The position numbers were made by a program, and so were the translations under genes. Of a stretch of 64,000 nt of DNA, positions 6,455-45,731 are shown piece by piece. Each line of letters starts with the position of its first letter. Positions within the stretch are counted from its first letter, which is position 1. The DNA is from Hyphomonas sp. GTDB lineage: Bacteria; Pseudomonadota; Alphaproteobacteria; Caulobacterales; Hyphomonadaceae. The notes beneath the pieces were generated by a model. It did not search any database, was not told where the DNA came from, and saw only the letters and a program-made list of their open reading frames with translations. Location of the stretch: the NCBI GenBank assembly GCA_002700305.1, contig PACZ01000006.1, positions 1 to 64,000 on the forward strand. Direction: 5' to 3'.

Positions 6455-6455
6455 T

Positions 6456-27306: not shown

Positions 27307-28464
27307 TCAATCCTGCCGCGTGATCGCCCGGTAGAGATAGTAGATCGCCAGCACGCTCAAGAGGACCGAGCCGAAGGCCAGCAAGGGACCGACAAAGGCT
27401 TCGCCCTCTCCGGCCGGAAACCGCTGCGGTGCTGGCGTCGCCGTCCGGCGGACGCCTTCGAACACACCCCAGAGGCCGAGGCCGGACAGGAGCGCATAAG
27501 GCAGCCAGCGCAGCAGGCTGATGTCGCCGTTCAGTCCGTTACCGCGGGCCGGCGGCACGGTCGGCGGGCGCAGGATCTCCCGGCGGCCGTCCGGAATCTC
27601 AGGAACCGTCTGGCGCTGGACCGGCTCAGTCTTGGGCGTTGGCGCCATCCGGGGGTGGCGGGCCTCAATGACCGTGTCATCCGGCCGGTCGTCTTCATGG
27701 CCATCCGGCTCTGCCAGGGCTGACACTGCCCGGGTGATTTCGTCAGCCGTTGGCACGCCGGTCTCGGACGCGTCCTGCGGCGCGCTTGCAGCTTGCTGTT
27801 CGTCCAGCAGTTTCGTCATCCGCTCGGCAACAGCCCGGGCTGCGGCCTGCGGGGCCGTGTCGGCGCCCGGCCGGGGCGGCGCAGCGGACGTCTGGCCATC
27901 CTCGGTCCGCGCCTCGATCACGACGGCGCGTTCCCGCGACATGGCGAGCGCCGCGCCGGGATCAAATTGCGGACGCATCAAGGCACCGGGCACGGGGATG
28001 CGGCCGGATGGGTGTTCCAGGAATAGGGCCTTCTCGGCCGCGCGCCGGCGGACCAGCGCATCCACCACGCGGACCTCGCCATCCACCCTGCCCTTCCGCC
28101 AGGCGGTCATGCCTTCGGCGGCCTGCAGCCGCTCGCCGCTGTTCAGAAGTGCCAGCACGTTGGATTCCAGGAAGGCGTCCGTGCCGATATTGAAAGCGAA
28201 GGACACCAGCGCGTCGAATTCATTCTGGGTGAGCGGTGTCAGCACACGCTCGCGGATCAACTCCTCGATCGGTGCCAGGTCATGGTGGCGCAGCACGAGT
28301 TCGGCATCGGCGCGGGTGACACGCAGGCCTTCGCGGGCGCCGGCCGTGTGGCCGAAACCAACGATCCAGTTGCCGTCCGGCAGGCGGGTGGCGCGCGCAC
28401 GAAAGCCCTCGAAGCTCTTGATAAGCTCGACCCCGGCTCCGGACGTGCGCATTGGCAGGGCCAT
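27307..28464 (-). CDS. spmX: SpmX-like polarity factor with inactive-looking lysozyme domain
   Basis: 385 aa: an N-terminal GH24 lysozyme-like domain (residues 5-150), a proline/charged-rich middle (about 160-320) and two C-terminal membrane segments (about 325-345 and 358-380). This is the architecture of Caulobacter SpmX, which places the DivJ kinase at the old pole. Residues 19-40 align without gaps to the GH24 active-site stretch: Glu19 is kept, but the catalytic Asp position holds Leu28 and the Thr position Ile34, the kind of loss described for SpmX. ATG 28464 or 28452 fits the family start. Its presence suggests a Caulobacterales-type cell cycle. Confidence 0.88.
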   Translation of the reverse strand: MALPMRTSGAGVELIKSFEGFRARATRLPDGNWIVGFGHTAGAREGLRVTRADAELVLRHHDLAPIEELIRERVLTPLTQNEFDALVSFAFNIGTDAFLESNVLALLNSGERLQAAEGMTAWRKGRVDGEVRVVDALVRRRAAEKALFLEHPSGRIPVPGALMRPQFDPGAALAMSRERAVVIEARTEDGQTSAAPPRPGADTAPQAAARAVAERMTKLLDEQQAASAPQDASETGVPTADEITRAVSALAEPDGHEDDRPDDTVIEARHPRMAPTPKTEPVQRQTVPEIPDGRREILRPPTVPPARGNGLNGDISLLRWLPYALLSGLGLWGVFEGVRRTATPAPQRFPAGEGEAFVGPLLAFGSVLLSVLAIYYLYRAITRQD

Positions 28465-28569
28465 GCAGAATGGCTCCCGTATTGAAACAGTTGATGTTTT
28501 TCTATGCCGCACCCTTGCAAATGGCGCGCCTTTTCCCCTGAGAGGTGAGTCCGGCGGCGTTGCCGGGCC

Positions 28570-29949
28570 TCAGAGCAGGACGAGCGTGGCCAGTCCCAGG
28601 AAGGAGAAAAATGCCATCACATCGGTCAGCGTCAACACAAAGACCGACGAGGCCACCGCCGGGTCCGCCCCCAGCTTCTTGAGCCCCAGCGGCACGAGAA
28701 TGCCCAGGAGGCAGGTCCAGGTAAACGTCATCACGACGGCAGCCATCGCAACCCCGGCAAGCAGCAGGTCGCCAAACCAAATGAGGATAATCCCGGAAAC
28801 AACCAATGAAAACATGAGGCCGTTGCCAAGCCCCGTCAGCAACTCACGAACGACAGTCCTGCGAACCGCAGGCCCTTCCAGTTCACGTTCGGCAATCGCG
28901 CGAACCGCAACAGCGAGTGTCTGGCTCCCCGCATTTCCGCCAAGAGCAGAAATCATCGGCATCAACACCGCCAGCGCGACCACTTTGTTAAGCGTCCCTT
29001 CGAAAATGGAAATCACCGCTGAAACAGCAAACGCCGTGCAAACATTGACCACAAGCCAAGGAGATCTGGCCCGAATCGAATCCCAGACCGAATCCGACGT
29101 ATCGGCCGATGTCACACCAGACAGGGCGAGAAAGTCTTCCGTGTTTTCATCCTGGATGACGTCCACCATGTCGTCGACGGTGATCATACCGACAAGCCGC
29201 CCATGGTCATCCAGAACTGGGGCCGACGCCAGAGAGTACTTCTGAAACTGATAGGCGACCTCTTCCTGGTCCATCTCAGTCGTAATGTTGGACAAGAGCG
29301 GCAACATGATTGCCGAAAGAGGTGTATCCCGAGAAGTCCGCAATAATTGAGACAATGGAACGGCGCCCAGCGGCCTGTAGGCTGGGTCTGTGATATAGAT
29401 CTCGTAAAATGTTTCGGGCAGTTCCTCGCCCCGTTCACGCGCATAATCGATCGTGTCGCCGACACTCCAATATTCCGGTGCCGCAACGAACTCACGCTGC
29501 ATGAGGCGGCCGGCGGACTCCTCCTCGAAGGCCAGGCCCTGCTCATATTGGGCCCGTTCAGCGGGAGCGAGATCGACCAGGATGCGTTCGCGCCGGTCGT
29601 CTTCAAGATCCTCAAGGATCGTGGTCGCGTCATCTGAGTCGAGTTCGTCGATGGCGGTCGCGACCGCCGCATCCGGCATCGCCTGAATTGCGCCTTCGCG
29701 GTATTCGTCGCGCAATTCGATCAGGATATTGGGGGGAAGCTCTCCCCCCAGAATGCCGACCAGCTCCTGAACCCGTTCGTAACTCAGCTGCTCCAACAGG
29801 TCAGCAGCATCGGCTGGGTGCATCCGGCGCAGATGACGATCGACCCAGCGGACGTCGTGATCGTCGATGGCATCCTGAAGTTCTTCAATGTCGCGTTCGG
29901 AAATGGTGCCGGCAACCTGTTCGGTCTCGATCGCTTCGGAATTCTCCAT
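28570..29949 (-). CDS. mgtE: MgtE family magnesium transporter
   Basis: 459 aa. The order is MgtE N domain (helical, about 10-130, with MHPADAADLLEQL), two CBS domains (about 130-260, ending VDDMVDVIQDE) and five membrane helices with the pore signature SALGGNAGSQTLAVAVRAIA. It imports Mg2+ and is gated by cytosolic Mg2+ binding to the N and CBS domains. The ATG at 29949 is preferred; a start at 29967 would add six residues. It lies just downstream of the four-gene signalling module but is a common housekeeping transporter. Confidence 0.93.
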   Translation of the reverse strand: MENSEAIETEQVAGTISERDIEELQDAIDDHDVRWVDRHLRRMHPADAADLLEQLSYERVQELVGILGGELPPNILIELRDEYREGAIQAMPDAAVATAIDELDSDDATTILEDLEDDRRERILVDLAPAERAQYEQGLAFEEESAGRLMQREFVAAPEYWSVGDTIDYARERGEELPETFYEIYITDPAYRPLGAVPLSQLLRTSRDTPLSAIMLPLLSNITTEMDQEEVAYQFQKYSLASAPVLDDHGRLVGMITVDDMVDVIQDENTEDFLALSGVTSADTSDSVWDSIRARSPWLVVNVCTAFAVSAVISIFEGTLNKVVALAVLMPMISALGGNAGSQTLAVAVRAIAERELEGPAVRRTVVRELLTGLGNGLMFSLVVSGIILIWFGDLLLAGVAMAAVVMTFTWTCLLGILVPLGLKKLGADPAVASSVFVLTLTDVMAFFSFLGLATLVLL

Positions 29950-30023
29950 AGGACCGGCCTCCCGCATGATTGCTATTCTGACGACACTATCAGGAGACGG
30001 GTTGCCTCGGCGTTACGTCCGGG

Positions 30024-32363
30024 TCAATCCCCTTCGTCAACCAACATCCGGCTGCTCAGGGTTCTGCGCTCCATCGCCGTCGAGGCCACGTGAAGCAGCA
30101 TGAAGAGCACCCCCGAAAGCAGGACCGACAACAACACCTGCCATCCATCAACTGCGTGCTTCGTCAGATAGTCCCCAAACCGGCCCAACCGCTCCGGCGC
30201 CGGTGGCATCATCGGCGCGACCATACGGCCGAGCGGTTCAGAAACAACCACCGAGGGGGTGATCGCGAAGCCGAGCAGGAAAATCAGCCGCTGAAACGCG
30301 CGGGCCCCGATTTCGAGCGTCTTTTCGATGCTGCTGAGCATGAGTTCAGTCAGGTTCGAATACCGTTCACTGCGCTCGGTGAGCCCCCAGCGTTTGTCCA
30401 GAGCTTCCCGCCAATTCTGCAGGGACGGATTGCTCGTCGCCGAGACGCCGCTTTCGGCAATCCGGGCTTCAAATGTCCGGTCGACCCGTTTCAGCAACAT
30501 CTGCAACGCCACTGTACGCTTTAACAGCCCCTCCAATTTGCGGCGGTTCGGCCCCCGCCATCGCCCCCTGTTTTTGCCGGATTTGTTTGAAGGCGGGTCC
30601 ATCAGGGTCGCGAAGCGCTCCTGGAGGTTCGCCAGTTCCAGATAAGCCGTCTTCAACGCAGCGTCTTTCGCAGCGCAGGCCTCAAACTGGGCAACCAGTT
30701 GCGAGCTATCGAGCATCCAGGGCCGCCAGTCATCAAACAACACCGCACCATCTTCGGTGACGATCACGAACCCGCCTTTGACATTTATACGGTCGTAGCT
30801 CATCGGATCGTATATCAGGGAAAATGTTCCATGCGGGATGTCTCCCTGCCGCGGGATGCTCGCCATAGCCCCCTCAACCGACGGCAACGACATCGCGCGG
30901 CCGTCATCGGGGCTCCCCTGCGCCCAACGAAGGTTGACCAATCGCTTGTCCCCACTCGTGACGGGCTTCGGCTCCTGCACAACATCCCAGAGTGAACGCT
31001 TCTCCAGGACAGCCTTTTCAGCAGGCCCATGGGTCTGGACCACGCGGATTTCCTTCAGCGGGTTGCTTGTCTCCCAGACAATCCTCTGGATGTCTTCCCA
31101 ATCTAGAAAGCTGCCGCGACTTGCAATTTCGGGCAGTCCCTGCCCGGTCTCGAAACCACGGGGAGAGGCAATCAGCGTGTATCGGCCGCCATCCTGATAC
31201 CAGGGCTCGTTCCAGACCGCCGGATCCAGGCCGGGCAGCCGCCGCGGTGCGTCTGACGGCCGGGTCACGCTTGCCGCTTTCCAGGCATCGCTTTCCGCGG
31301 ACTCAATCGCGTCATAAATCGGTTTCAGGCATATGCCGCTGTCCGGATCGCTCGACAGGGTGAAGCGATTGCCGGGCGTGGCGTTCGGCCTGTAAGCGAC
31401 GGCAACATCGAACCCGCGTTTCATCGGCGAATTCTCTGTATCCTTTCGGTAAAAGAGCTTGGCCGCGCCCGCTTCTTCTTCCTCTTCGTAAATCAAAGCA
31501 TCGGCAATCCGCACCCGCTCCCCTGGTTTTCCGTCATGTCCCAACAAGGGCAGTCTGAGCTGTACGATATTGGCATGCTCCAGCCATGCCTGATAAATGT
31601 CCTGCTCACGCTCGAGCGCGGATTGGAACGCCTGCTGATGATGGAGTGACGGACTTTCGGGCAGCCGATCAACCAGGCAACCTTGGCGCAAAGCATCTGT
31701 CAGGAACTGAACACCACTTGTCCAGGCATTGCTCAGTGACTGCGGATCAATCCATTGATCCTCCTTTGCAGGTGCTCCGTCTCCTGATTGAGCCGACGAA
31801 GCCCGCGTAAAGATGGCATGCGATCCTGCGGATTGTAGCGCACACCAGTTCCGCATGGGGTCTCCGGTGACATTTCCGTCCCGCCGATGGCGGGAAACAG
31901 CCTCGATCCACGGCTGCAACTCAGGCGGAACCTGGTTTGACAGCAATCGGATCGCCAGGATCACGAAAGCCAGCAGCCGGTCTGGTGTCGCATCATCCTG
32001 CACAACCAAAGCGCCAGAATTCAGGCGGGATACCAATGAGGCCGCATCGCCTGACGGCGGCAGCAAAGGTGCCATTTCGGGACTGGCTGCCAATTCGGAC
32101 AGGCACCTGAAGCCCGCATACGGACCTGTCAGGCTTGGAACAACCAATATCCCGTTTTGCGGATCAGGTTGACTGACGCCGATCGCAATCACATCCGTAT
32201 CCAGATGGGTCACCGCCTGGCTACCAAGCGGAACGGATCGTATATTTAGCTTCTCAACCGTCTGAAAAGCCTTGAAGACTTCTTCAAGTACACCGCCCAT
32301 ACCTGTACCTACGCCTGAGAACCAATAAGAAGCCGAGTGTATTGGTTCGGTTAGAGGTTGCAA
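30024..32363 (-). CDS. module protein D: large protein with C-terminal membrane anchor, unknown function
   Basis: 779 aa, not recognised. The N-terminus has a glycine-rich loop (FSGVGTGMGGVLEEVF, residues 16-31) followed by alternating strand-helix sequence (VIAIGVSQ, GILVVPSL) that could be a nucleotide-binding Rossmann- or tubulin-like fold; this is a faint resemblance only. The middle is mixed; residues around 570-680 are helical with long charged stretches. Two hydrophobic segments near the C-terminus (about 690-712 and 741-762) should anchor it in the inner membrane. It is the last gene of a four-gene operon, starting 7 bases after the radical SAM gene stop. Confidence 0.65.
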   Translation of the reverse strand: MQPLTEPIHSASYWFSGVGTGMGGVLEEVFKAFQTVEKLNIRSVPLGSQAVTHLDTDVIAIGVSQPDPQNGILVVPSLTGPYAGFRCLSELAASPEMAPLLPPSGDAASLVSRLNSGALVVQDDATPDRLLAFVILAIRLLSNQVPPELQPWIEAVSRHRRDGNVTGDPMRNWCALQSAGSHAIFTRASSAQSGDGAPAKEDQWIDPQSLSNAWTSGVQFLTDALRQGCLVDRLPESPSLHHQQAFQSALEREQDIYQAWLEHANIVQLRLPLLGHDGKPGERVRIADALIYEEEEEAGAAKLFYRKDTENSPMKRGFDVAVAYRPNATPGNRFTLSSDPDSGICLKPIYDAIESAESDAWKAASVTRPSDAPRRLPGLDPAVWNEPWYQDGGRYTLIASPRGFETGQGLPEIASRGSFLDWEDIQRIVWETSNPLKEIRVVQTHGPAEKAVLEKRSLWDVVQEPKPVTSGDKRLVNLRWAQGSPDDGRAMSLPSVEGAMASIPRQGDIPHGTFSLIYDPMSYDRINVKGGFVIVTEDGAVLFDDWRPWMLDSSQLVAQFEACAAKDAALKTAYLELANLQERFATLMDPPSNKSGKNRGRWRGPNRRKLEGLLKRTVALQMLLKRVDRTFEARIAESGVSATSNPSLQNWREALDKRWGLTERSERYSNLTELMLSSIEKTLEIGARAFQRLIFLLGFAITPSVVVSEPLGRMVAPMMPPAPERLGRFGDYLTKHAVDGWQVLLSVLLSGVLFMLLHVASTAMERRTLSSRMLVDEGD

Positions 32364-32370
32364 CCGGTCA

Positions 32371-33843
32371 TCAGAGCCGCCCGAGGGTATTGTACCGCTT
32401 CAGCCGCGAAATGGCGTCAGCATTTTCCGGTCGATCGAAAGATCCGCCTTCTACGGCGAGTCCTTCATCATTCAGACCGAAGTAAAGGCGCACATGGTTC
32501 GGCGACGCCTGTTTGAGGTAGTCAACCATCAGGTCCAGATTCGGCGGCGTGAAACTGCCGTCCCTGAAGGCAGTCTCAAGCTCTGTGCCCACAGCCGCAT
32601 ATGTCGGGTTGATATGAAGTGTGATCGCGACACCATACTCTTGCGAAAGACCGTCAAAAAACCGGATCGCCTGATCGATATCGTCAACGGCTTCGTGATC
32701 GCTGATGCCCGGCACCGGCTTGAGCATCATGTAACAGCGCAAATCACCACCCGCTTCGCCGAGCGATTTCACCAGGGCCTGGATCGCTCTGTCCGACAGG
32801 CCTTTTCGAATTACCCGGTTCCTCAGGTGCTTGTCGAACACTTCCACGCCGAGCGCGAGCTCAAAGGAAAGGTCCGGCTTGCCCGCAAGCTCAATCACCT
32901 TTGCAATAGAGGCCAGCTTTTCCGGCGTGACAAACTCTGCGCGGGTTTCCAGGCTGATCCGCCTCAGCTTCGGCATCCGCGCTGCAGCAACCTGTATACT
33001 GTGCAGCAGAACCGATTGCGGAAATGTCGGCTCATCCAACACGCTGCCATTGTTCGATATGACCAGCGTCCGGATGGAGGCCAGCTCCTCTTCGGTCCAG
33101 GCCACACGGAACACATAGTCTGTCTGCTCGATCAGATCATGCGGCAGGATCTTCGCCTGAGACGACAGATCCGGCAGGGCGCAGCCCTGGCAAACCTTAT
33201 AAGTACAGGCCGGCGAGAAATATACGATGAACGCGACGGTCCCCCCTATGGTTTCGCTCATCCAGTACTGGATGGGACGGTTCACGGGGTGGAAAAATTT
33301 GACGATCGCCGGCGTCGGTTCAGGCTGACGGTTCGGCAGCGGCAAGTCACAACGCTGCAGCAGGAGCGCCAACGGAACCGTGGAGACCAGATCAAGCAGC
33401 GCGATCAGGAAGTCCCGCGTTGCGCCTGCTTCAAGGTGCGCCTGCAAGGCAGCCACGTGGTCACGAGAGTCGATTATCCTCTCAAGCTCTGCCCTGTGGC
33501 CGTGAAAAAAGCGGACCAGTTGCGGCAGGGTATCGACACCAAATTGATCATAGCAGATCCAGTCGGCAACCGCTCCGACAAACAGCTTGTGCAGGACGCC
33601 TGTGCGTGAAGATCCAAATACGCTTGACGTTGCAAGTTTCAGGCGGACATCAGCCAACACCCATAGACAGGCATCCGTCAGCGTATCGACCGTCTCTGGC
33701 CGGGGCGTCGCAACACCCAGTGCGCTTTCATAAATACTCGTATCGAATTCAGTATCGTCAACGCGCTGGTTGACCGACACAACAACAGCGCCCTGCTGTC
33801 GCATCACACGGCGCACCGCCGTCGCTCGGCTTTCGCTTATCAT
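32371..33843 (-). CDS. module protein C: radical SAM enzyme resembling archaeosine-synthase-type proteins
   Basis: 490 aa. An N-terminal helical region of about 180 residues precedes a radical SAM domain with Cys213, Cys218 and Cys221 (FSPACTYKVCQGCALP), a CX4CX2C spacing different from the canonical CX3CX2C. The following TLVISNNGSVLDEPTFP, LRRISLETRAEFV, FELALGVEVFDKHLRNRVIRKGLS and CYMMLKPVPGISDHEA segments follow the pattern of the Elp3/RaSEA/YgiQ-like groups. The substrate is unknown. It begins 6 bases after the stop of the 1014-aa gene. Spontaneous loss of the cluster motif is not evident, so it is probably active. Confidence 0.8.
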   Translation of the reverse strand: MISESRATAVRRVMRQQGAVVVSVNQRVDDTEFDTSIYESALGVATPRPETVDTLTDACLWVLADVRLKLATSSVFGSSRTGVLHKLFVGAVADWICYDQFGVDTLPQLVRFFHGHRAELERIIDSRDHVAALQAHLEAGATRDFLIALLDLVSTVPLALLLQRCDLPLPNRQPEPTPAIVKFFHPVNRPIQYWMSETIGGTVAFIVYFSPACTYKVCQGCALPDLSSQAKILPHDLIEQTDYVFRVAWTEEELASIRTLVISNNGSVLDEPTFPQSVLLHSIQVAAARMPKLRRISLETRAEFVTPEKLASIAKVIELAGKPDLSFELALGVEVFDKHLRNRVIRKGLSDRAIQALVKSLGEAGGDLRCYMMLKPVPGISDHEAVDDIDQAIRFFDGLSQEYGVAITLHINPTYAAVGTELETAFRDGSFTPPNLDLMVDYLKQASPNHVRLYFGLNDEGLAVEGGSFDRPENADAISRLKRYNTLGRL

Positions 33844-33849
33844 GGTCCG

Positions 33850-36800
33850 TCAACTCTTGTGCTTCCGGGTATGAATAACGCCATCGACATAGTCTGCATA
33901 GACAAAGCGTTTGACGGTATCCTGCCCCTCATGACCCGGCGTATATACCATGTACCCGCCCTCTTCCGCCTCCTCCAACAAGAGGAATTGCTTCAGCACT
34001 TCGGGATTTGCCTCCGGTATCCGGGCCAACCGGAACAGGCCATCGTCGATCGCTGAGGCTTGCGCTTCATGTCCGGCTGCGTAGAGCACGAATTTCAGTT
34101 GCTGCGCGAGCCCTTCAAGCCCGTACAGGAAGAATTCCAGCAATTGATTCCGCGCCGCAGGAATGAGGTCAGGTGCCGTGGCCTTGTCCATGTTGCGGCG
34201 ATCATAGAGCATCGACAAGAAATGATAGCCGTCCGCATAAAGGATCGGACGTAATGCCTGATTGAGGCTGGCGCCCGTCGCAGCGGCAGCCAGAAGCATA
34301 TCACTCTGAAACGCAAAGGATGTCAGCTTGTCATAGGCATTGCGGCCCGCGAAATCCGACACATCCGGAAAGGCTTTCAGCGTATCCTGCATTCCGAATT
34401 CAGGCTGATACATGAATCGAATCAAATCAGCCGCCTTCAGGGGGGTGTCACCAGAAGACAGCAAGCCGTCATGAAGTGACATGAACAGATTCGAGATGAA
34501 GTCCGTGCCCTCAGCTTCTGCTGTCGCTTGTTGTACCCGTCCGATCAAACGAATCTGATCCATCGCACCATTCACGACTTCGACCTGCTCGTTCCAGAAC
34601 TGGACCTCGTTGGGCACGATGAGCGCAGGGAACGTAACGGCCCGATTGCCACGTATTTTCTCGAGAAACGGCTTGGGCGACTGCGCAGATCGCATCTTCG
34701 ATGCAGCCCGATCAATGTCTTTCTTCGATCTGTACCCTTCGGCATTTGCGACGGAATACATGATGTAAGAGATCCGCACCGCATTTCGCTGGAACGCCAT
34801 CATCGCATTCCACATCCGGTTCCGGCGGGTTTCGTTCCACTCCACCGCCAGTTTGCGTTCTTCGATACTGCTCAACAGGTGACTGAGCGGTCTCGCCCAG
34901 GCCGCGGGCAACTGGGTCAGGACGCGCTTTGCCCAGTCCATCCTCTGGCGATAGAATCTTGCCCGCAACTCGAGACGGTTGAGCGCCATCCGGCCATCAA
35001 ACAGAACCGTCGCAGCATCCAGTTCATTGGCATGCGGAAAGAAGTAACGACCGCCATCGATATGGAGGCGGTCGTTCAGGTGTGTGGAAACCGGAAACAC
35101 CGAATGCGGCCAGCGATGCCGTTCGAAGCCTTCCCAGTCCACATTGCCTTCCCGGGCGAGCAGCGTCTCAATGGGCGGGTCGAGCAGGAGTTCTGCGGCG
35201 CGGTTCAAATTCTCGATCACCTCTTCGGGAAAGCGATCAAGGATTCGTCGGTCCGGCTTTGAGATGTAGGGTTTGGCTTCAGTGGCAAGGTGGCGCGCGA
35301 TCACCAGACTGTGTTCGGCCCAGTCGGCCTCATGCTTGTGTCCTTCCGGAACGCATCCGTACGGCGTATTCCAGCTTTTCACGAGCCAGTTGTGAAATGC
35401 GCGAACCGTCCAGAGCGGCAGGTGTTCTTTCTGCCCGCCCTCCTCAAGGACAGAGCGGGCGGTCTTGAACAGACGTTCCGGCGGCACAGGTCGACCGTCT
35501 GCTAACCGGGCCGGCAGTTCCGCCAATGCCTCATCTTCGGCCCAATCCATAATAGTCAGCGCCGACTCAAACAGCTCCGTCAGAATTTCATTCGGATCGG
35601 AAATCTTTTCCGCAACGCGGTCCGCTTCCAGAAGGAAATCCCAATTGATCGGATCAATGAGGAGTTCCGGATTCTCCAGAAAGACAGAGTCTATCTGCAT
35701 ACGGACCCCTCCGGCACTCGATTTCTCGATGGCGCGCCCGACCAGATTATGCAGAACAAAACGGCTGGCCCGTTTCAGAAGCTCTTCGCGTGCAGAGGCG
35801 TCCTGCAACCGGGTCTCCGGCAGGTCATCATAAAAGACGCCCGGAACCATACCCAATCGAGAGAGCAACATGTCCGAACTGTCGTCCGGAGGAAGCACGA
35901 AGACGACTTTATTCCTGGGGAACATCTCGATCACGCGGCTCATGAGCACCTCTTCGTGATCGTACTGGCTCGAAGTCCGCTTCTTCGAGAATTCATCCTC
36001 TCCACAGAACCTGACGACCAGGACCGAATTGTCCCGCCGCGAACGAAACTCTTCCAGTATGGCCGGCGTTGCCTCGACACTTTCAAGGTATTCAATATGC
36101 CGCGGCGCATTTCGATGACTTCGTTCCACAGCGAGACAAACGCACTGCAGAATGAAGTTCCGGCTATGCGACCGTGGCGAGCGCAGCGCGATCCGGTTGC
36201 AGGACCGGACATATTCAGACCGTAATTCCCACCGCTCAACAAAATCGCGATGGGCTCCGAAGAATGGAAAGTACGAAATGGAAAACCGTTCCGCATCTGA
36301 TTTTGCGGTGCGCATCAGGTTCATGCGTTCCGCAATACGGCTGAGATCAAGCCAGCCGATATTCGCTCGAAACTCCTGAAGGATATACCGCGCCGCATCC
36401 TGGGGCATGATCGACCCACGGCCGCGGCGTTCTTTCTGAAAGTACGGCCTGCCTTGCAGGCCAACCGAAATCAAACTCTTCTGTCCCTCGCTGGCGGAGC
36501 TGAGAAAGATAAAAGGGATACCGTGCTTCGCCAGGCGCTCGGCTGCTGCAACACCATTGCGAATTCGGGGTTCGTAGTCGCAATCGGGATCCGGCGTGGC
36601 ACCTTCGACGGGTGGCCGGTGCTCCGGAACGCGCAGGTCAATCACGCCAAACAGGAAACGAGAATAGCGCTCCGGGCCATTCAGATAGTCATCAAGCGCC
36701 TCATTGAACTCTTCCAGACAAGTTACGGGAAAAATGGCCAGGTTCAGCAAACGGTTGATCCTGTGATCGGTCGTGCTGAGCGATCGCTGCCATACCTTCA

Positions 36801-36894
36801 GATCAGAATCTTCGCCGCGATAATCCGCGTCCAGGAAATTGTCGTCGAGCCACAGCAAGTTCCCGCCGGTGTATATCTGCTTATCCATCGGCAA
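33850..36894 (-). CDS. module protein B: large protein with N-terminal receiver-like domain
   Basis: 1014 aa. Residues 10-160 read as a response-receiver fold: acidic pair Asp17-Asp18 (LLWLDDNF), candidate phospho-acceptor Asp86 (LFGVIDLRVPEH), Ser132/Ser133 (IPFIFLSSASE) and Lys154 (YFQKERRG). The rest, about 850 residues, is largely helical with no motif I recognise and no membrane segment. No DNA-binding output domain is visible. The start overlaps the end of the 1403-aa gene by 14 bases. It is probably the phosphorylation target of protein A (inference). Confidence 0.7.
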   Translation of the reverse strand: MPMDKQIYTGGNLLWLDDNFLDADYRGEDSDLKVWQRSLSTTDHRINRLLNLAIFPVTCLEEFNEALDDYLNGPERYSRFLFGVIDLRVPEHRPPVEGATPDPDCDYEPRIRNGVAAAERLAKHGIPFIFLSSASEGQKSLISVGLQGRPYFQKERRGRGSIMPQDAARYILQEFRANIGWLDLSRIAERMNLMRTAKSDAERFSISYFPFFGAHRDFVERWELRSEYVRSCNRIALRSPRSHSRNFILQCVCLAVERSHRNAPRHIEYLESVEATPAILEEFRSRRDNSVLVVRFCGEDEFSKKRTSSQYDHEEVLMSRVIEMFPRNKVVFVLPPDDSSDMLLSRLGMVPGVFYDDLPETRLQDASAREELLKRASRFVLHNLVGRAIEKSSAGGVRMQIDSVFLENPELLIDPINWDFLLEADRVAEKISDPNEILTELFESALTIMDWAEDEALAELPARLADGRPVPPERLFKTARSVLEEGGQKEHLPLWTVRAFHNWLVKSWNTPYGCVPEGHKHEADWAEHSLVIARHLATEAKPYISKPDRRILDRFPEEVIENLNRAAELLLDPPIETLLAREGNVDWEGFERHRWPHSVFPVSTHLNDRLHIDGGRYFFPHANELDAATVLFDGRMALNRLELRARFYRQRMDWAKRVLTQLPAAWARPLSHLLSSIEERKLAVEWNETRRNRMWNAMMAFQRNAVRISYIMYSVANAEGYRSKKDIDRAASKMRSAQSPKPFLEKIRGNRAVTFPALIVPNEVQFWNEQVEVVNGAMDQIRLIGRVQQATAEAEGTDFISNLFMSLHDGLLSSGDTPLKAADLIRFMYQPEFGMQDTLKAFPDVSDFAGRNAYDKLTSFAFQSDMLLAAAATGASLNQALRPILYADGYHFLSMLYDRRNMDKATAPDLIPAARNQLLEFFLYGLEGLAQQLKFVLYAAGHEAQASAIDDGLFRLARIPEANPEVLKQFLLLEEAEEGGYMVYTPGHEGQDTVKRFVYADYVDGVIHTRKHKS

Positions 36895-39800
36895 GCCCCA
36901 CCAACATCATTGTACTGTGCAACTTTTCCGCCACCGCAGAGATTTTATCTGCCTGCGCAGGCTCTGCCTCCATCAGTCCGAACAGGAAATTTCGCAACCG
37001 CAGGTAAGAGGCCTCAGCTGCTCCATACTCGAATTTTTCTGCTTCCTCTGACACAACCTTCGACAGCAGCTCTTTTCGTTCATCGGCAGACAACGAGGCC
37101 GCGCGCAATTCAACATTAGGAAGCGACCGGCTCCGGTCTTCCAGATAACTTTGTAGATCCCGGGTCAGGCGCTCGACCTCTCCGGGGTTCTCCTTATGCA
37201 AATTAAGCAGGTCATGCCGCGTAATGGCGACGGCGCCGGAATTTTCGCGAACTGTCCCCGCGAGCATTTCTGCGATTCCCTGGGGGTCGCCCGGTGCTGC
37301 GACAATGTTATAGTTCAATAGCCAGTAGCGCACAGATGGGGCAAGCTGAACCTCGCCCTGCGTATTGCTTACCAACATCGCGAGCCGGGAATGATATGAC
37401 GGTGAAAAGACTGGACGCGGCGTCGGGCTCCTTCCGCCCAGCAATGGAAGTGACGGAAGCCGCATCCAGGAATCAACTGCCTCATAGAGATCCAGCATCC
37501 TCGCATCAGCGAGCACGAAGTCCGGCCTTGGCTCGGCATCGAGCAGCGCGAGATATTTCTCGTCGAACTTGTCCAGATGAGGTCGCTTGATCGTTAGTTT
37601 CTCAGCCGTTCCGGCAGCGGCTGGCCCGGTCACCCACGAAGCTTCCGGTGCCGAATTTGCCGGGCTCAACCGGGCTCCGATCATGTCTGCCAACTCGCCG
37701 CCCCGGGCTGTTTCCTTGAGATGCTTCATGCTGAGGATAACAACCTGGCCGCTGGCAAGCGGGTCTTCGCAGTGATTCAAGGTGACCGGCTTGTATTTTT
37801 CACCAAGGCAGCATTTTCCCGACCGGGGATCCGTGATCACCTCCACTGCCTGCGCAGCGGTAAGGTTTGTGGCAATCCACACGGGCGGGTAATGCCCGGC
37901 CTCGGCGGCCAATGCCCCGTAGAACTCAAGAGCTTCCACACCATTGGTCGTGGAAATGCCGGCTTCACCGTCGCCCCTGGGAACATTGAGATCCGAGATA
38001 ATGAGCTTCGGCAGGCCGGATTCAAGCATCCTCTCGAATTCGGCGACCGTCTCTGCCACTTTGACCGTCAGTCCGGAGGAACGCTCTCCAATCGCCTCAA
38101 CAGTCGCGTCGCTGTTCTCGACACTATCCTCCAGGATCAGGATGTCCGGACAGAGTTGGTCGAAATCAGTGTCTTCTTTGGTCGCGCGTTCTCCTGAAGA
38201 CGTGATCTGGTCAAACCCGCCATGCGCGAGTTTCGCCGGCAGCTGGATACGCGCTTGCACCCAATCTGCCGAAAGCCGGAAATACCGCATGTCCGCACGC
38301 GACCCGAGTCCGTTCTGCAGCAGCTGGCGCGACGCATAGACCCCCACACCCGTCGAGGTCTTTTTCTGATTGTTCTGCAAGCCTTCCTTCTGGGGTGTAC
38401 GGGACGTGAGCCGTGCCCAGATGTCCGGTGCAACAGGCGCACTGGTGTTCTCAACGGTCAGGTCGAGCGAATGCTCATTGGTGGCCGAGTTGAAACTCGC
38501 CTGAACAACGATCCGGACCTCAGCGTTCGAGGGCGCAGACTCCCCGAGTGATGCTTCCACCGCATTTTTCAAAGCGACATCCAGGCATTCCCGCACAGCC
38601 ATGACCGGCAATTGTAAAGTCAGGTTGGGAATGGGGACATAATGAAACGAAAGAACGGGAACGCGGCCGGCTTCCCGGCCATGCGCCAGAAGATAGTTCT
38701 CGGCATACTGCGCAATGCGTTCAGCCACGCTCTTTTCCAACCGTTCCTCGAGCATTCCGTCTTCAAGCTGGAGAATTTCGTCACAATCGGGGTCCTGATC
38801 CAGCCAGATGCGGGCCAGGTACCGCGCGCCATTGCTGTATGCCGGAATATCATCCATCGCGGTCCGGTCGAAGCGGACAGTCTTCCGAACCGAATTCCAC
38901 TGAGCGTCCAGTTCATCGTGGTGCGACTTGTCGATATGAATTTTCATCTTGTGGACAAGGCTGTCCATAAGTGCGCTGACGACATCAACGCGCCGCTCAA
39001 GGAAGTCGATTTCCCGCTTGCGATCCCGCAGTCGCTGCCGGCAGATCATCTGTACAAGAAGCTTAAGGTCCTCACGTTCAGCTTCCAGGTCCGGAATAGA
39101 TTTTTCCGGATCATCATCAGCAATCAGGATAATTGTGAATTTATTGGAATCAGGCGGGAGATAGTGCGCATCCACATCTTCACCGGCGGTCCGCCTTTCG
39201 CGCTTGTTCTCCTGAGACAGGAGAGGCTCGAAAGACAGAACCACAACTTTGGATTCGATATCGCCTGTCGATTGCTGGGCCCAGAACTGCTCGAGTTCCT
39301 GAGGCTGCAGGCCTGCAATCTTTCCGCAACGGTCAACATAGGCTTTGTTGATCGCACTCAACAGCGGAAAGTCCCTGTCGAAATCGGAACGGGACACGAA
39401 ATCATACAGGAAACCCTCGCGGGTGAACTGTCGCCGAAGTCCTGCTTCGTTCGCTTCGCGATACTCCTCAACATTCACAATATCGATATCCGGACCCGAC
39501 GAGATAATGGACTCAATCGCCATCTCAGCGAGCTGTGTCCGCCGGTCCAGTTTTCCCGCCGCGATCACCGTTCGCTCGGAATTGGCAACATAGGCGTCAG
39601 GCTCAACCAGTTCTGACATTTCAACATGATCTCGATTGTTTCGCACAAGATCGAAATCGTGTTTGTATTTGATGCTTTTCAGCGTGACGGCAAACTCACG
39701 ATTGAGATCCCGGCCCACCCGCTCGAACGAAGCACGCGTCTGGAATCGATCGATTGGCGACTGGCTTTCCAACGCCGCCTCCAGCACACGGATCCGGACA

Positions 39801-41092
39801 GCATCGGCACCTGATTTCAGTTGTGTAGCCTCTGCCCCAGTGTCCGGAATAATAAATGCCCGGTCAAACGGAAACGTTTCCGTATCCAGCACACCTTCAA
39901 TCCGCATGCAGAGCAGCTCTTCGACAAACCGTGTCCAGAAGTCGAGCGTCGTTTCATTTTTCAGACGGGCGTCGGATGCCTCTTTACCCAGCAGACCTGA
40001 AACCCCCTGCCCGAACCAGGCGCGCGCGATCTTCGACCCTTCACCACTTGAAATCCGGATCGCTTCGCCGCGTTGGCGAGACATGAGTTTGTAATGCAGG
40101 GCTCCCAGAGATGCATCCAGCGCAGCTTCCAGTTCCCGCTGCCCCCTGTCGCCGAGCATTGGCACACTGGGCGGCGCCTGAAATACGCCGATAAATATAT
40201 CGGGCATATTGGCAATGTCTTCGGGAATGCTCTCGTCGATGAACCAGGGATCGGACGGGGTGATAGAAATCAAAAAGGTAATATCGGGACTACCGTTCAG
40301 ACTGGCCACATAAGTCACTGGCAAAACGTCGATCGCGTCTGTGAAGCGATCTGAGTTCCGGGCCCCATCCTCGCCATCCGCTACATCGTACTTGGATTTA
40401 CGGTATACTTTTTCGAGCCAGGCGATGACATGTGCCCGGACGAATACGTTTGTATCCGTTGACCAGTTCTCGTCTTTTTCGGTTCGGCTCGGCCGATGCT
40501 GCCGGAACTGCTCGAACAGGTATTCCGACAATGGCCGCAGAAGCGCCAGCCTGTCGGGCGGCTCCATATCGTCACCAGAAAGGTTTCTTGTGATTGCATC
40601 GAGATTTAGCGTTTGACTGAGCGAGCGGTCAAACGCCCCATCCTCCAACGGACGAACAGAGTGGTCTAGTTGCTGATCGTGAAGCAGTTGAAGGTACCGG
40701 CTCACCTTGTCGTGCTGCAGTTCACCGTAATGAGCCGAATCCAGTTCCGGATAGTGGACGAAAGCGCGATTGCGTTTTCTGTCCCGCCGCATCTCGATCA
40801 TGCAGACCGGCTGACCAAGGCTGCGCATGGGGCTGTCCCCCAGCAGCGCCATCGCCTCTTCCTGGCCAGGGCCAAACTCTTTGCTGAGAAAATGAAAGAA
40901 AAGAGCCGCTGGCCCATACCCCTTGAGCGCTGGTTCCGCATCAACAGATTCAGCACTATAGGCGAGCGTTCGCGCCTCGATCCGGCTAAAGACCTGCGCC
41001 TCAGAAATGGAGCCGGAGTCGAGCTTTTCAGCGTTCCATTTGTCCTCATCAAGCGAAATTCGCCAGAGTCTGCTTGCTCTTTCCTGATTCAT
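36881..41092 (-). CDS. module protein A: histidine-kinase-like ATPase fused to a receiver domain
   Basis: 1403 aa. The first ~650 residues are unassigned and might be a sensor. A helical stretch around 680-730 contains MDSLVHKMKIHIDKSHHDE, where His714 is a possible phospho-acceptor, though it does not fit a standard H-box. A GHKL ATPase region follows with N box around Asn843 (LDVALKNAVEASL) and the G2 loop TGVGVYASRQLL near 913. The receiver spans about 983-1100: Glu988/Asp989, Asp1034 (LIISDLNVPRGDG), Thr in VWIATN and Lys in LGEKYKPVT. About 300 unassigned residues follow. A GGAAG element precedes ATG 41092. First gene of the operon. Confidence 0.78.
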   Translation of the reverse strand: MNQERASRLWRISLDEDKWNAEKLDSGSISEAQVFSRIEARTLAYSAESVDAEPALKGYGPAALFFHFLSKEFGPGQEEAMALLGDSPMRSLGQPVCMIEMRRDRKRNRAFVHYPELDSAHYGELQHDKVSRYLQLLHDQQLDHSVRPLEDGAFDRSLSQTLNLDAITRNLSGDDMEPPDRLALLRPLSEYLFEQFRQHRPSRTEKDENWSTDTNVFVRAHVIAWLEKVYRKSKYDVADGEDGARNSDRFTDAIDVLPVTYVASLNGSPDITFLISITPSDPWFIDESIPEDIANMPDIFIGVFQAPPSVPMLGDRGQRELEAALDASLGALHYKLMSRQRGEAIRISSGEGSKIARAWFGQGVSGLLGKEASDARLKNETTLDFWTRFVEELLCMRIEGVLDTETFPFDRAFIIPDTGAEATQLKSGADAVRIRVLEAALESQSPIDRFQTRASFERVGRDLNREFAVTLKSIKYKHDFDLVRNNRDHVEMSELVEPDAYVANSERTVIAAGKLDRRTQLAEMAIESIISSGPDIDIVNVEEYREANEAGLRRQFTREGFLYDFVSRSDFDRDFPLLSAINKAYVDRCGKIAGLQPQELEQFWAQQSTGDIESKVVVLSFEPLLSQENKRERRTAGEDVDAHYLPPDSNKFTIILIADDDPEKSIPDLEAEREDLKLLVQMICRQRLRDRKREIDFLERRVDVVSALMDSLVHKMKIHIDKSHHDELDAQWNSVRKTVRFDRTAMDDIPAYSNGARYLARIWLDQDPDCDEILQLEDGMLEERLEKSVAERIAQYAENYLLAHGREAGRVPVLSFHYVPIPNLTLQLPVMAVRECLDVALKNAVEASLGESAPSNAEVRIVVQASFNSATNEHSLDLTVENTSAPVAPDIWARLTSRTPQKEGLQNNQKKTSTGVGVYASRQLLQNGLGSRADMRYFRLSADWVQARIQLPAKLAHGGFDQITSSGERATKEDTDFDQLCPDILILEDSVENSDATVEAIGERSSGLTVKVAETVAEFERMLESGLPKLIISDLNVPRGDGEAGISTTNGVEALEFYGALAAEAGHYPPVWIATNLTAAQAVEVITDPRSGKCCLGEKYKPVTLNHCEDPLASGQVVILSMKHLKETARGGELADMIGARLSPANSAPEASWVTGPAAAGTAEKLTIKRPHLDKFDEKYLALLDAEPRPDFVLADARMLDLYEAVDSWMRLPSLPLLGGRSPTPRPVFSPSYHSRLAMLVSNTQGEVQLAPSVRYWLLNYNIVAAPGDPQGIAEMLAGTVRENSGAVAITRHDLLNLHKENPGEVERLTRDLQSYLEDRSRSLPNVELRAASLSADERKELLSKVVSEEAEKFEYGAAEASYLRLRNFLFGLMEAEPAQADKISAVAEKLHSTMMLVGLADG

Positions 41093-41412
41093 TTAAACTT
41101 CCGATACCGCCTGCGACATTGGAGCTTAACTGGAATGATGGCACCTATTCACGCAGAATCTCCTCGAAATTGAATTTATCCCCAGACTGACGGCAATTAC
41201 GCGACTTAACAGGCAATCCGACCCGTCACACGCGAAGTTTCGGCGTATCTAATGGCCTTGCGGCAAAAGGCTGTCAGTCGGAACGGTTGAGTTCTGCCTT
41301 TTTGATCTACTTGGCGAGCGACCAATTGTGCACGTCTGTTGGCCGTCATGGATGCGGCAAGCACGGCCTGCCGCAACGCTGCTACGGGCAAAGGCGGCTC
41401 ATCCAGTCAGCA
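41093..41412. other. 320-base intergenic region upstream of the four-gene module
   Basis: Lies between the module's first start codon and the stop of the MarR gene, both on the minus strand. It holds no credible gene; short open frames here lack ribosome sites and sensible composition. It must contain the module promoter, but no convincing -35/-10 pair was found. No tRNA, repeat or attachment-site-like sequence was seen. Confidence 0.6.
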
Positions 41413-43013: not shown

Positions 43014-43712
43014 ATGCACAAATTTTCTCCTGTCCAGTGGGCTGTGTCGGATCGGCCGGTTCCCTACGAAGACGCCCTCGCCTTTATGGAGGCGCGCGCC
43101 CGCGCGATTCATGAAGAAGATGCGCCCGAACTTGTCTGGTTCCTTGAGCACCCGCCGCTCTATACGGCAGGCACGTCAGCGAAGCTGGACGACCTGCGGG
43201 ACCCCGCCCGTTTCCCCGTTTTCGATGCCGGGCGCGGCGGGCAGTACACCTATCACGGCCCCGGCCAGCGGGTGGCCTATGTGATGCTGGATGTGGGCAA
43301 GCGCGGCAAGGATGTGCGTGCCTTCGTGCAGAACCTTGAGCGGTGGATCATCACGGCCCTGCAAAGCTTCAACATCGATGCCGGTCCCCGCGACGGGCGG
43401 GTGGGTGTCTGGGTCGACCGGACGCAGGCCGGCGGCCCGCTGCGCGAGGACAAGATCGCCGCCATCGGCGTGCGCCTGAAGCGCTGGGTCAGCTTCCACG
43501 GCATCAGCCTCAATGTTGAACCGGACCTCGAACACTTCAGCGGCATCACGCCGTGCGGCATTGCGGATCCGCGCTATGGCGTGACCAGCCTGGCCGATCT
43601 CGGCATTCCGGCGACGATGGCAGATGCAGACATCGCCCTCCGGGATGCGTTTGAAACCGTCTTCGACAGCGCGCTGGAACCGGTGCCCTGCCCGCTTCAG
43701 CCCGCGGCGTAA
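43014..43712 (+). CDS. lipB: octanoyltransferase (lipoate biosynthesis)
   Basis: 232 aa. Transfers octanoyl from acyl carrier protein to lipoyl domains. Family signatures are [10 protein letters not shown], the [20 protein letters not shown] block and [22 protein letters not shown] with the active-site Lys, then CGI in [16 protein letters not shown], with the catalytic Cys. ATG 43014 is used; ATG 43002 is a possible alternative. The open frame upstream of these overlaps the tRNA and is not coding. Confidence 0.95.
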
Positions 43713-44467
43713 GCAGGCGGCAGCTCTTCCTCGCCCTGGGCAATGTCGCTGCCGGTCCTGAACCGGCCAACACCGCCATTCGGAATGCGGGCGACAAAGA
43801 GCAACGTCCACAGCATCACGAAAAATGAGGTCGGCGCCCAAGCAAGCATGGCAAGGCCGAGACCGGAACTGGCAGCCATGTCCCGCTCACTTTGCGGCGG
43901 CCCCGGACGGCGACGCTGCTGAGGCTGAGGCTGAGGCTTCGCGGCAGCGGCCTCTGCGCCGTCTTCCGCAGGCGCCTCGGCCGTCACGGCAGGTTTTGGC
44001 GCGTGCATCGCTTCATACTTTTTGATGCCGCCCTGTGCACCGAGATAGAAGCCGACCAGGCCGAGCATCAGCGGGATCAGGACGATCATCGCCCAGAGCG
44101 GGGATTTGTGCGCCTCATTGAAGCGGCGCACATGCGCGACCCATGACGTGAACTCCGTCACGATCACGAACACAAAGAACGGCAGCAGCAGCTCCGGGAC
44201 TGGCAGGACCAATGCCTCGACCGGCTTCCAGAGGCCGCTGAGGTCCGCCCCGGCGAGCGACGCGATGAACACGGTGAACACCGGAACGATGTAGAGCAGC
44301 ACACGCCCCAGGAACATGAAGGTCCACGCCCGGGTGAAGTGCAGTTTCGGGCTCGACCCGAACGGATTGAAGAATACCTGGCCCCAGCGCATGTCGTGGG
44401 GGTTGTCACGGGCATCCTTGATCCAGGGACGATGCGGATCAATCGCGGTGGGGTCGTTGGGTTTCAT
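43697..44467 (-). CDS. membrane protein, diverged DUF805-like
   Basis: 256 aa. Four hydrophobic segments (about 47-72, 84-106, 124-143 and 200-223). [25 protein letters not shown] resembles the RRLHDxGxSGW core of DUF805 proteins, but the length and a 45-residue Ala/Pro/Gln-rich insert (about 155-198) are unusual. It is first of four related genes in a row on the same strand. Its end overlaps the end of lipB by 16 bases. Confidence 0.6.
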
Positions 44468-44493
44468 GAGCGGCGTTTATCCTTGCGCGGGGG

Positions 44494-45018
44494 TCAGGAA
44501 GCATCGGGACGGCCGGTCGCCGGCCCGTGGGCATTGGCATCCGGATCGGAAGGCAGGCGCCCCGCAACCAGGGCGAGGCCGGCACTGGTGATCAGGAAGC
44601 TGACCAGCCGGGTCAGGGCAGTGCCGCGGGCGATCTCGATGGCGTGTTTCTGCTGCGCTTCCATCATGCCGCCGAAGCCGTCGGTCAGGCCAACCTCCTG
44701 AATCTGGGTCATCAGCGGCAACATGTCCGGCGACAGAACCGGAAGCAGCACGGCGTTGAGGATCGAAGAAACCACCACAAAGCCGAACAGGAACAGCACA
44801 TTGAACCAGGCCGTCTGGCCGGCATCGTGCAGGCGCTTGGCGAGCACGCAGAAATAGCCCCACAACAAGGGATATTGCAGGAGCGCTGCGCCCACGGACG
44901 CGCCGACGATGAGAACCTGAATGATCAGACCGGCACCCGTGAGCAGGATCAGGCCGCGCAGAAAGTCGCGCGGGCCGATGCGGCCTTTTGGATTCAGCAG
45001 GACATAGGAAATGTCCAT
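44494..45018 (-). CDS. DUF805 family membrane protein
   Basis: 174 aa inner-membrane protein. It opens MDISYVLLNPKGRIGPRDFLRG (the DUF805 GRIxRxxF start), has about four hydrophobic segments and the AKRLHDAGQTAWFNVLF core. An ACAGGAGAC ribosome site is present. Function of the family is unknown. It lies 26 bases before the 256-aa DUF805-like gene and is probably co-transcribed with it. Confidence 0.8.
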   Translation of the reverse strand: MDISYVLLNPKGRIGPRDFLRGLILLTGAGLIIQVLIVGASVGAALLQYPLLWGYFCVLAKRLHDAGQTAWFNVLFLFGFVVVSSILNAVLLPVLSPDMLPLMTQIQEVGLTDGFGGMMEAQQKHAIEIARGTALTRLVSFLITSAGLALVAGRLPSDPDANAHGPATGRPDAS

Positions 45019-45109
45019 TCGTTGAAAGTCTCCTGTGGTCAGGTCGGGTCTTCTGCCGGGTTCTTATCAATAAACGATAAATCCGTGCAAGCAAAACCCG
45101 CACACTAAA

Positions 45110-45137
45110 GAGCCGGACCCCTCATAGGGCCCGGCTC
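45110..45137 (-). terminator. hairpin after the third DUF805 gene
   Basis: GAGCCGG / CCGGCTC with an inner CCCT / AGGG extension, 46 bases beyond the stop of the gene at 45184. On the minus strand it is followed by a short T-rich stretch (TTTAG). Confidence 0.6.
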
Positions 45138-45183
45138 CCAATTCTACACCCGGCCGGGGCCGGGATCGAGGGACAAGCCGCGA

Positions 45184-45633
45184 TCAGACGAACGTATCGG
45201 CTGCGCCAGCGGTCGGGTTAAGCGGATCCGGACCGTACTTGTTCGGGCCTTTGGTGCCCGGGATACAAGCGATCACGATCGCGGCGATACCGGCAATCAT
45301 GTTCAGCACCGGCACGAAATTGGCCACGACGAGGCCAGCATAGATCCAGCCCGTCTGGTTGATGTCATGCAGGCGGCGAATGAACAACGCGATGCCCGGA
45401 ATGATGATCGCCAGCACATAAATGGCCACCAAGGCGATAAGGATGAAGCCGAGCGGCGACACTTCCTCGGTGCGCATATTGATGCCGCCCAGAACGAAGA
45501 ACAGTAGCGCCCAGACGCCAAAGATGATCAGGTTGAACAGGTAGACCCACCAGTATTCGGCGCGCGTAGAGCGGCCCTGGAAGTCGACATAACGCGAGAA
45601 GAACAATTTTATTGCGTCGGGAAAGCTGACCAT
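45184..45633 (-). CDS. DUF805 family membrane protein
   Basis: 149 aa, the most typical DUF805 member here: MVSFPDAIKLFFSRYVDFQGRSTRAEYWWVYLFN at the N-terminus, four membrane segments and RRLHDINQTGWIYAG, ending GTKGPNKYGPDPLNP, which is the usual family tail. ATG 45633 has a strong AAGGAG ribosome site. A hairpin follows, so it can be transcribed apart from the two genes downstream. Confidence 0.87.
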   Translation of the reverse strand: MVSFPDAIKLFFSRYVDFQGRSTRAEYWWVYLFNLIIFGVWALLFFVLGGINMRTEEVSPLGFILIALVAIYVLAIIIPGIALFIRRLHDINQTGWIYAGLVVANFVPVLNMIAGIAAIVIACIPGTKGPNKYGPDPLNPTAGAADTFV

Positions 45634-45731
45634 TTCAGGTCTCCTTGTGTTGCCGGGCCCCCTCTGAAGCACCCGAACTGTTGATCATTCTGATAAAACG
45701 CCGCCCGCGAAGTCTGGCGGGACTCTACCGC

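What the first reader, a model, noticed from the sequence alone, without database searches (positions are those of the whole stretch)
30024..41092. Four-gene module joining two-component signalling domains to a radical SAM enzyme and a membrane-anchored protein
Seen in sequence: four minus-strand genes spaced by -14, +6 and +7 bases. In order they encode a GHKL ATPase plus receiver (1403 aa), a receiver-like protein (1014 aa), a radical SAM protein with a CX4CX2C cluster (490 aa) and a protein with two C-terminal membrane segments (779 aa). Sampled GC is about 53-57% against 62-70% in flanking housekeeping genes, with no DNA-binding output domain. Two-component cascades normally end in transcription factors or diguanylate enzymes; here the only obvious enzyme output is a radical SAM. 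I know of no described defence or signalling system with this set. Inference: a phosphorylation-controlled modification or conflict system.
Basis: partly seen in the sequence, partly recalled or inferred. Interest (0 to 1): 0.87.

Follow-up and report, generated by a model that had tools for sequence, protein, structure and literature searches.

The report
Two-component radical-SAM membrane-protein operon
A rare four-gene unit that moves between bacteria joins a phosphate-relay sensor to a radical-chemistry enzyme and a membrane protein; it resembles known phage-defence logic but matches no described system that we could find, and its function is untested.

Summary
In detail: four tightly spaced minus-strand genes at the stated coordinates. 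P1 carries a degenerate GHKL ATPase and a receiver; P2 begins with a receiver; P3 is a radical SAM protein distantly like RaSEA with a conserved CX4CX2C; P4 has two C-terminal membrane segments. No Pfam, NCBIfam or PADLOC model accounts for the set.

The unit is real. The same four genes in the same order occur in another family of the order (G818; 30/32/45/26% identity). Both copies sit at unrelated sites that are empty in congeners, so it moves laterally. It is rare: only these two full copies turned up in samples of 60-398 genomes.

P4 belongs to a wider family: in 4 of 8 distinct loci it lies near STAND NTPases, and its end looks CorA-like (moderate, mixed evidence). Best reading: a phosphorelay-gated conflict module with a membrane effector and a radical SAM enzyme that modifies something or makes a signal. 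Defence is inference. It works like Detocs but fails the Detocs features tested. Nine literature searches of an open-licence library found no description.

The parts
36881..41092 (-). P1, 1403 aa: unknown N-terminal half, degenerate GHKL ATPase, receiver, unknown C-terminus
38951..38953 (-). P1 His714, candidate phospho-acceptor in a conserved S-x-V-H-K
   Evidence: conserved in both copies; role inferred
38306..38608 (-). P1 residues 829-929, GHKL ATPase (N, G1, G2 boxes; G1 is ENT(S/T)AP)
   Evidence: hhalign 95.4%, E 1.9e-8 against 19 HATPase domains
37856..38146 (-). P1 residues 983-1079, receiver with acceptor Asp1034
   Evidence: hhalign 97.8%; E988, D989, D1034, T1075 conserved
33850..36894 (-). 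P2, 1014 aa: receiver followed by a long part without a named domain
36427..36867 (-). P2 residues about 10-156, receiver (D17, D18, D86, S132/S133, K154)
   Evidence: conserved in both copies; hhalign 86.1%
32371..33843 (-). P3, 490 aa: radical SAM protein with an unknown N-terminal 200 residues
32497..33234 (-). P3 residues 204-449, RaSEA-like radical SAM core with C213, C218, C221
   Evidence: TIGR01210 E 1.5e-23, 83.6 bits, cut-off 212; cysteines conserved
30024..32363 (-). P4, 779 aa: soluble region plus membrane end, member of a wider family
30081..30287 (-). P4 residues about 693-761, two membrane segments, CorA-like
   Evidence: mixed result
29833..41259 (.). stretch without a counterpart at the congener sites L030 and L033 (for L029 similarity resumes at 41422): the inserted DNA including the 5' end of mgtE

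Best explanation
A laterally moving, phosphorelay-controlled conflict module, most likely anti-phage. Shown: a four-gene operon recurring in a second family; GHKL and receiver domains with conserved acceptor residues; a radical SAM core with conserved cysteines; a membrane end conserved across the P4 family; gain at two unrelated sites. Inferred: P1 senses an insult through its N-terminal half, phosphorylates itself (candidate His714) and passes phosphate to its own receiver (Asp1034) and to P2 (Asp86). Phosphorylated P2 is the switch, its long C-terminal part releasing or recruiting the outputs. P3 does radical chemistry on a nucleotide, tRNA or peptide, as damage or to make a ligand. P4, held in the membrane by a CorA-like end, opens or disrupts the membrane and stops the cell. 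Elsewhere P4 relatives seem to be driven by STAND NTPases; here the two-component pair would take that place.
For: Same order of four genes in G818 at 26-45% identity. Both insertions absent at congener sites, and divergent GC and mgtE point to import. Receiver and kinase residues conserved, domains supported by profile tests with low-scoring controls. P4 relatives near STAND NTPases in 4 of 8 distinct loci, one of them in a stretch with BREX-2 and toxin-antitoxin genes. CorA-like end: first 45 Foldseek rows are CorA, MRS2 or CmaX, PF01544 in one relative at E 2.6e-5. Type III CRISPR CorA effectors have the same layout of soluble domain plus CorA-like membrane end (PMC10600005, passages).
Against: No phage data. 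Neither copy lies in an obvious defence island; G818's lies beside pheT and pheS. PADLOC gives no convincing match. The G1 box lacks the usual Asp-x-Gly-x-Gly, and a plain hmmsearch with the HATPase profile is not significant, so kinase activity is uncertain. The receiver lysine is not clearly conserved in P1. CorA likeness is weak: no Foldseek match at E<=0.001 and low TM-scores, generic helical bundles outrank CorA in VIA-align, PF01544 in L013 is below its cut-off, the family profile gives 46.7% and the two-copy P4 profile 0.1%. 4 of the 8 P4 loci showed no STAND NTPase nearby. Only two full copies are known here.
Confidence: 0.42

Rival explanations
1. A relay-controlled adaptation module without a role in conflict: P3 modifies a tRNA, nucleoside or metabolite when P1 senses a stress, and P4 anchors the complex or moves ions.
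For: P3 is closest to RaSEA, a tRNA-modifying enzyme; two-component systems normally serve adaptation (recalled); no defence genes beside either copy were recognised.
Against: Patchy presence and lateral gain at two sites; P4 relatives near STAND NTPases; no archaeosine partner protein recognised in the operon.
Confidence: 0.27
2. A relay-controlled peptide or natural-product maturation unit: P3 modifies a peptide or small molecule that P4 exports or responds to.
For: The nearest RaSEA-like plasmid relatives lie in Streptomyces clusters with P450, carbamoyltransferase and glycosyltransferase genes.
Against: No other biosynthetic gene in the operon of either copy and Pfam shows no transporter in P4; no search for very short peptide genes was made.
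Confidence: 0.14
3. A regulated ion (Mg2+-type) uptake or efflux module built on a CorA-like P4, beside mgtE.
For: CorA-like end of P4; the window copy lies next to mgtE.
Against: mgtE is the ordinary neighbour in all 10 congener loci read, and the G818 copy is not beside mgtE; the CorA likeness covers only the end of the protein and is weak; a radical SAM enzyme has no place in this reading.
Confidence: 0.08
4. Four unrelated genes that happen to lie together.
For: Only the rarity of the set.
Against: Same four genes, order and strand at an unrelated site in another family at 26-45% identity.
Confidence: 0.01

Closest known systems
Detocs (defensive two-component system)
   Same: Multi-gene system built on two-component signalling with a non-transcriptional output (three-gene family that degrades ATP: PMC11249213, passages)
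   Different: Four genes; no purine nucleoside phosphorylase match in Pfam; no receiver detected in P3 or P4, whereas the Detocs effector is fused to a receiver (recalled); extra radical SAM enzyme
RaSEA, archaeosine radical SAM enzyme (TIGR01210)
   Same: Radical SAM core of P3 and of the G818 P3 (83.6 and 105.1 bits)
   Different: Far below the 212-bit cut-off; extra N-terminal 200 residues; no archaeosine partner recognised in the operon
CorA effectors of type III CRISPR (SAM-AMP pathway)
   Same: N-terminal soluble domain plus C-terminal CorA-like membrane end (PMC10600005, passages)
   Different: No CRISPR protein in the four genes; P4's soluble part is of another, unnamed family; direct comparison with CRISPR CorA sequences was not made
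STAND NTPase conflict systems
   Same: P4 relatives lie near STAND NTPases in 4 of 8 distinct loci
   Different: Pfam finds no STAND or AAA domain in P1-P4 of either copy
Predicted HATPase/REC defence system in DefensePredictor (figure legend)
   Same: Histidine-kinase-like ATPase and receiver domains are named in the legend on predicted, not yet validated systems (PMC13092281, passages)
   Different: Figures and supplements are not readable here; the held main text has no 'radical' and no CorA, so identity can be neither shown nor excluded

Membership tests
Two-component signalling proteins | Receiver domain with phospho-acceptor Asp | tested here: met
   P1 97.8% and P2 86.1% as fragments against 18 receivers; D1034 and D86 conserved
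Two-component signalling proteins | GHKL ATPase with N, G1 and G2 boxes | tested here: inconclusive
   Profile test 95.4%, N and G2 boxes in register, but G1 degenerate and hmmsearch not significant
Two-component signalling proteins | Autophosphorylation on His | not testable with these tools
   Candidate His714 conserved in two copies
Detocs | Three-gene system | tested here: not met
   Four genes in both copies
Detocs | PNP effector of the best-described type | tested here: not met
   No PNP family among Pfam matches of P1-P4 at E<=1
Detocs | Effector fused to a receiver (recalled) | tested here: not met
   P3 and P4 pairs 0.1% against the receiver profile; P2's C-terminal part has no named domain
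RaSEA (TIGR01210 equivalog) | Score above the curated cut-off of 212.15 bits | tested here: not met
   83.6 bits (P3) and 105.1 bits (G818 P3)
Radical SAM superfamily | Cluster-binding cysteines in a radical SAM core | tested here: met
   C213, C218, C221 conserved in both copies; TIGR01210 match at E 1.5e-23; the PF04055 match alone is below cut-off
CorA channels | CorA-like stalk helix and two membrane segments | tested here: inconclusive
   For. Against: generic bundles rank higher, two-copy profile 0.1%
Prokaryotic viperins | Match to a viperin model | tested here: inconclusive
   No PADLOC match for P3 at E<=1; I did not confirm that the library holds viperin models
Known or candidate defence systems in PADLOC-DB 2.0.0 | Convincing match of the proteins to a system's models | tested here: not met
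   Only weak matches: SduA on the P1 receiver, E 0.0034, and a CARF model on the G818 P3, E 0.04
Anti-phage defence system | Protects a host from phage | not testable with these tools
   Needs a phage challenge

The most novel reading that the evidence does not exclude
A CRISPR-free analogue of the SAM-derived messenger pathway of type III CRISPR: a phosphorelay senses infection and switches on a RaSEA-like radical SAM enzyme that turns SAM or a nucleotide into a new messenger, which gates the CorA-like membrane protein P4. It would be a phosphorelay that runs a radical-chemistry second messenger, a kind of system not met in the searches made here.
Probability: 0.08. Interest if true: 0.92.

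Novelty: new variant of a known kind. Interest (0 to 1): 0.68.

Why it matters
Two-component relays usually end in transcription factors or second-messenger enzymes (recalled). A mobile operon that ties a relay to a radical SAM enzyme and a membrane protein would widen the Detocs-like idea, and it points to an effector family (P4) that two unrelated sensor types, STAND NTPases and phosphorelays, appear to share. It offers defined residues (P1 His714 and Asp1034, P2 Asp86, P3 cysteines) for direct tests.

Tried and rejected
Archaeosine pathway membership: not claimed, since P3 lies far below the cut-off and no partner gene was recognised. PADLOC systems: only weak matches.

Hits set aside: L002 is a PTS transporter with a chance match to P3. 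Not followed up and not counted: L006, L037, L016, a 95-residue match, and L018, a partial P4-profile match at E 7e-14. The NCBIfam and Pfam matches with E above about 0.01 to unrelated families were ignored.

Searches that gave no relative: four viral-contig scans with P3, P1, P2 and the P3 pair; plasmids by tblastn with P1, P2 and the G818 P1 and P2; phages with P3.

A structure of P1 residues 690-1110 from one sequence failed (pLDDT 34.7) and was not used. PDB profile searches: the P2 and P3 pairs gave nothing useful, the P1 pair weak receiver matches at E 0.1-0.65, and the P4 profile put Wzc chains (E 0.015) above CorA chains (E 0.41 and weaker). A third receiver near the P1 C-terminus reached 10.2% and is not claimed. 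Families not listed by VIA-align are not excluded.

Full report
Observation. The four minus-strand genes are present at the stated coordinates and spacings. I call them P1 (36881-41092), P2 (33850-36894), P3 (32371-33843) and P4 (30024-32363). Their GC is 55.9-58.6%, against 60.9% for the window and 62-65% for marR, lipB and gyrB.

What the libraries say. Pfam finds a sub-threshold receiver in P1 and a sub-threshold radical SAM core in P3 (other matches at E<=1 are of unrelated families), and nothing in P2 or P4. NCBIfam gives the archaeosine radical SAM enzyme RaSEA for P3 at E 1.5e-23, 83.6 bits against a cut-off of 212. PADLOC gives one weak match, SduA, on P1's receiver (E 0.0034).

A second copy. 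In 299 genomes of the order, P1 found one strong match besides its own genome, in G818, a genome of another family. Around it lie homologues of all four genes in the same order and strand (1368, 972, 493 and 695 aa), with tblastn identities of 30, 32, 45 and 26% and spacings of -4, +3 and +11 bases by their coordinates. So the set is a conserved unit.

Domains, tested on the two copies. P1 residues 829-929 align with HATPase domains (19 of the 24 loci from the own genome passed a motif filter) at 95.4%, E 1.9e-8, with the N, G1 and G2 boxes in register; a plain hmmsearch with the same profile is not significant. As controls, whole P1 gives 93.0% and the P1 N-terminus, P2, P3 and P4 give 0.1-1.1%. 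The G1 box is ENT(S/T)AP in both copies instead of the usual Asp-x-Gly-x-Gly (the usual form recalled). A conserved S-x-V-H-K around His714 is a candidate phospho-site. Against 18 receivers, P1 scores 97.8% and P2 86.1% as fragments (96.3 and 59.8% as whole proteins); P3 and P4 score 0.1%. P2 keeps D17, D18, D86, S132/S133 and K154; P1 keeps E988, D989, D1034 and T1075, but not clearly the lysine. P3 keeps C213, C218 and C221, and the G818 P3 also matches RaSEA, at 105.1 bits. RaSEA converts preQ0-lysine in archaeal tRNA to archaeosine in a complex with ArcS (PMC11298593, passages); no such partner was recognised here.

P4's family and company. L016 is a 95-residue match and was dropped; L009, from the same genus as L008 and scoring almost the same, was not examined further. 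Of the other 8 loci (L007, L008, L010-L015), 4 have a STAND-type NTPase nearby: L008 divergent at 212 bases, L015 on both sides within 150 bases, L007 and L014 within 2.5 kb on the same strand. L007 and L014 are both from Chromatiaceae, so they are not fully independent. L013 has a DUF4145 protein and a Ser/Thr kinase-WD40 protein further off. In L010, L011 and L012 I saw no STAND neighbour when reading the ORFs, but these neighbours were not scanned with Pfam, and L011 and L012 are short contig pieces. L007 also carries BREX-2 genes and toxin-antitoxin pairs. A tblastn of P1, P2 and P3 against these loci at E<=0.01 found none of them.

Mobility. None of the four module genes is found at 10 congener mgtE loci that I read, out of 21 same-genus genomes searched, which all have mgtE. 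At 7 of these 10, marR follows mgtE: directly in 5, with an acyl-CoA-dehydrogenase-like gene (named by eye) between them in 2, L030 and L033. The window has no counterpart from 29833 to 41259 against L030 and L033, and to 41421 against L029. A 107-base stretch at 41260-41366 matches DNA at the end of that intervening gene. The window's mgtE is 69% identical to three close congeners that are 95.8-96.7% identical to each other, so mgtE was probably imported with the module. In G818 the unit lies between a membrane-protein gene (channel-like by eye) and pheT. These two genes are neighbours without the unit at 5 of the 11 congener loci with a strong match; at the other 6, pheT is not within the fetched flank.

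Rarity. Matches at E<=0.001: P3 in 2 of 385 class genomes (own and a chance hit); P2 in 2 of 398 phylum genomes (own and one weak hit not followed up); the P4 profile in 2 of 398 (own and one partial hit); P1 in 3 of 299 order genomes (own, G818 and one weak hit); the P3 pair in 1 of 190 class genomes (G818); the P2 pair in 1 of 60 genomes of G818's family (G818). These samples overlap, and other phyla were not sampled this way.

Mechanism. Shown by sequence: a kinase-like ATPase domain, two receivers, a radical SAM core and a membrane protein in one mobile, conserved unit. Inferred: sensing by P1, relay to P2, switching of P3 and P4, and membrane damage that stops the cell. I put this conflict reading at 0.42; the chief rival is a relay-controlled adaptation module without a role in conflict.

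Comparison with what is known. Detocs is the nearest in logic (PMC11249213 and PMC10952713, passages); three features were tested and not met, one of them (receiver-fused effector) recalled. The vWA-MoxR conflict systems include a variant with a radical SAM effector gene, but with vWA and FtsH-type parts (PMC7159879, passages), which Pfam does not find here. The DefensePredictor paper names HATPase and REC in a figure legend on predicted systems (PMC13092281, passages); figures are not held, so overlap with this unit cannot be excluded. Type III CRISPR CorA effectors share P4's layout (PMC10600005, passages). That the set is undescribed rests on nine searches of an open-licence library that lacks most subscription journals.

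Novelty. A new variant of two-component-run effector systems, in which at least two protein families (P2 and P4) have no name in the libraries used here.

Noticed in passing
window 5210-7175: Two adjoining minus-strand ORFs (425 and 239 aa) with GC of 44-47%, the lowest in the window, and no Pfam match at E<=0.001; possibly another recent acquisition.
   Followed up: partly
window 41260-41366: A 107-base stretch matching the end of an acyl-CoA-dehydrogenase-like gene that lies between mgtE and marR in two congeners (L030, L033); the rest of that gene is missing here.
   Followed up: partly
window 28570-29967: mgtE is 69% identical to three close congeners that are about 96% identical to each other, as if imported together with the module.
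   Followed up: partly
window 27307-28512: Phage-lysozyme-domain protein next to mgtE, also more divergent from close congeners (about 80%) than most of the neighbouring genes compared.
   Followed up: no
L010 9683-12941: A P4 relative is followed on the same strand by a corA-like gene (named by eye; 11955-12941), of interest given the CorA-like end of P4.
   Followed up: no
L003 11827-12942 and L004 11827-12942: RaSEA-like radical SAM genes on Streptomyces plasmids (L003: TIGR01210, 172.6 bits) inside what look like natural-product clusters with P450, carbamoyltransferase and glycosyltransferase genes.
   Followed up: partly
window 43697-46265: Four neighbouring small ORFs, three with DUF805 matches (one below cut-off), of varying number and identity among congeners.
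   Followed up: no
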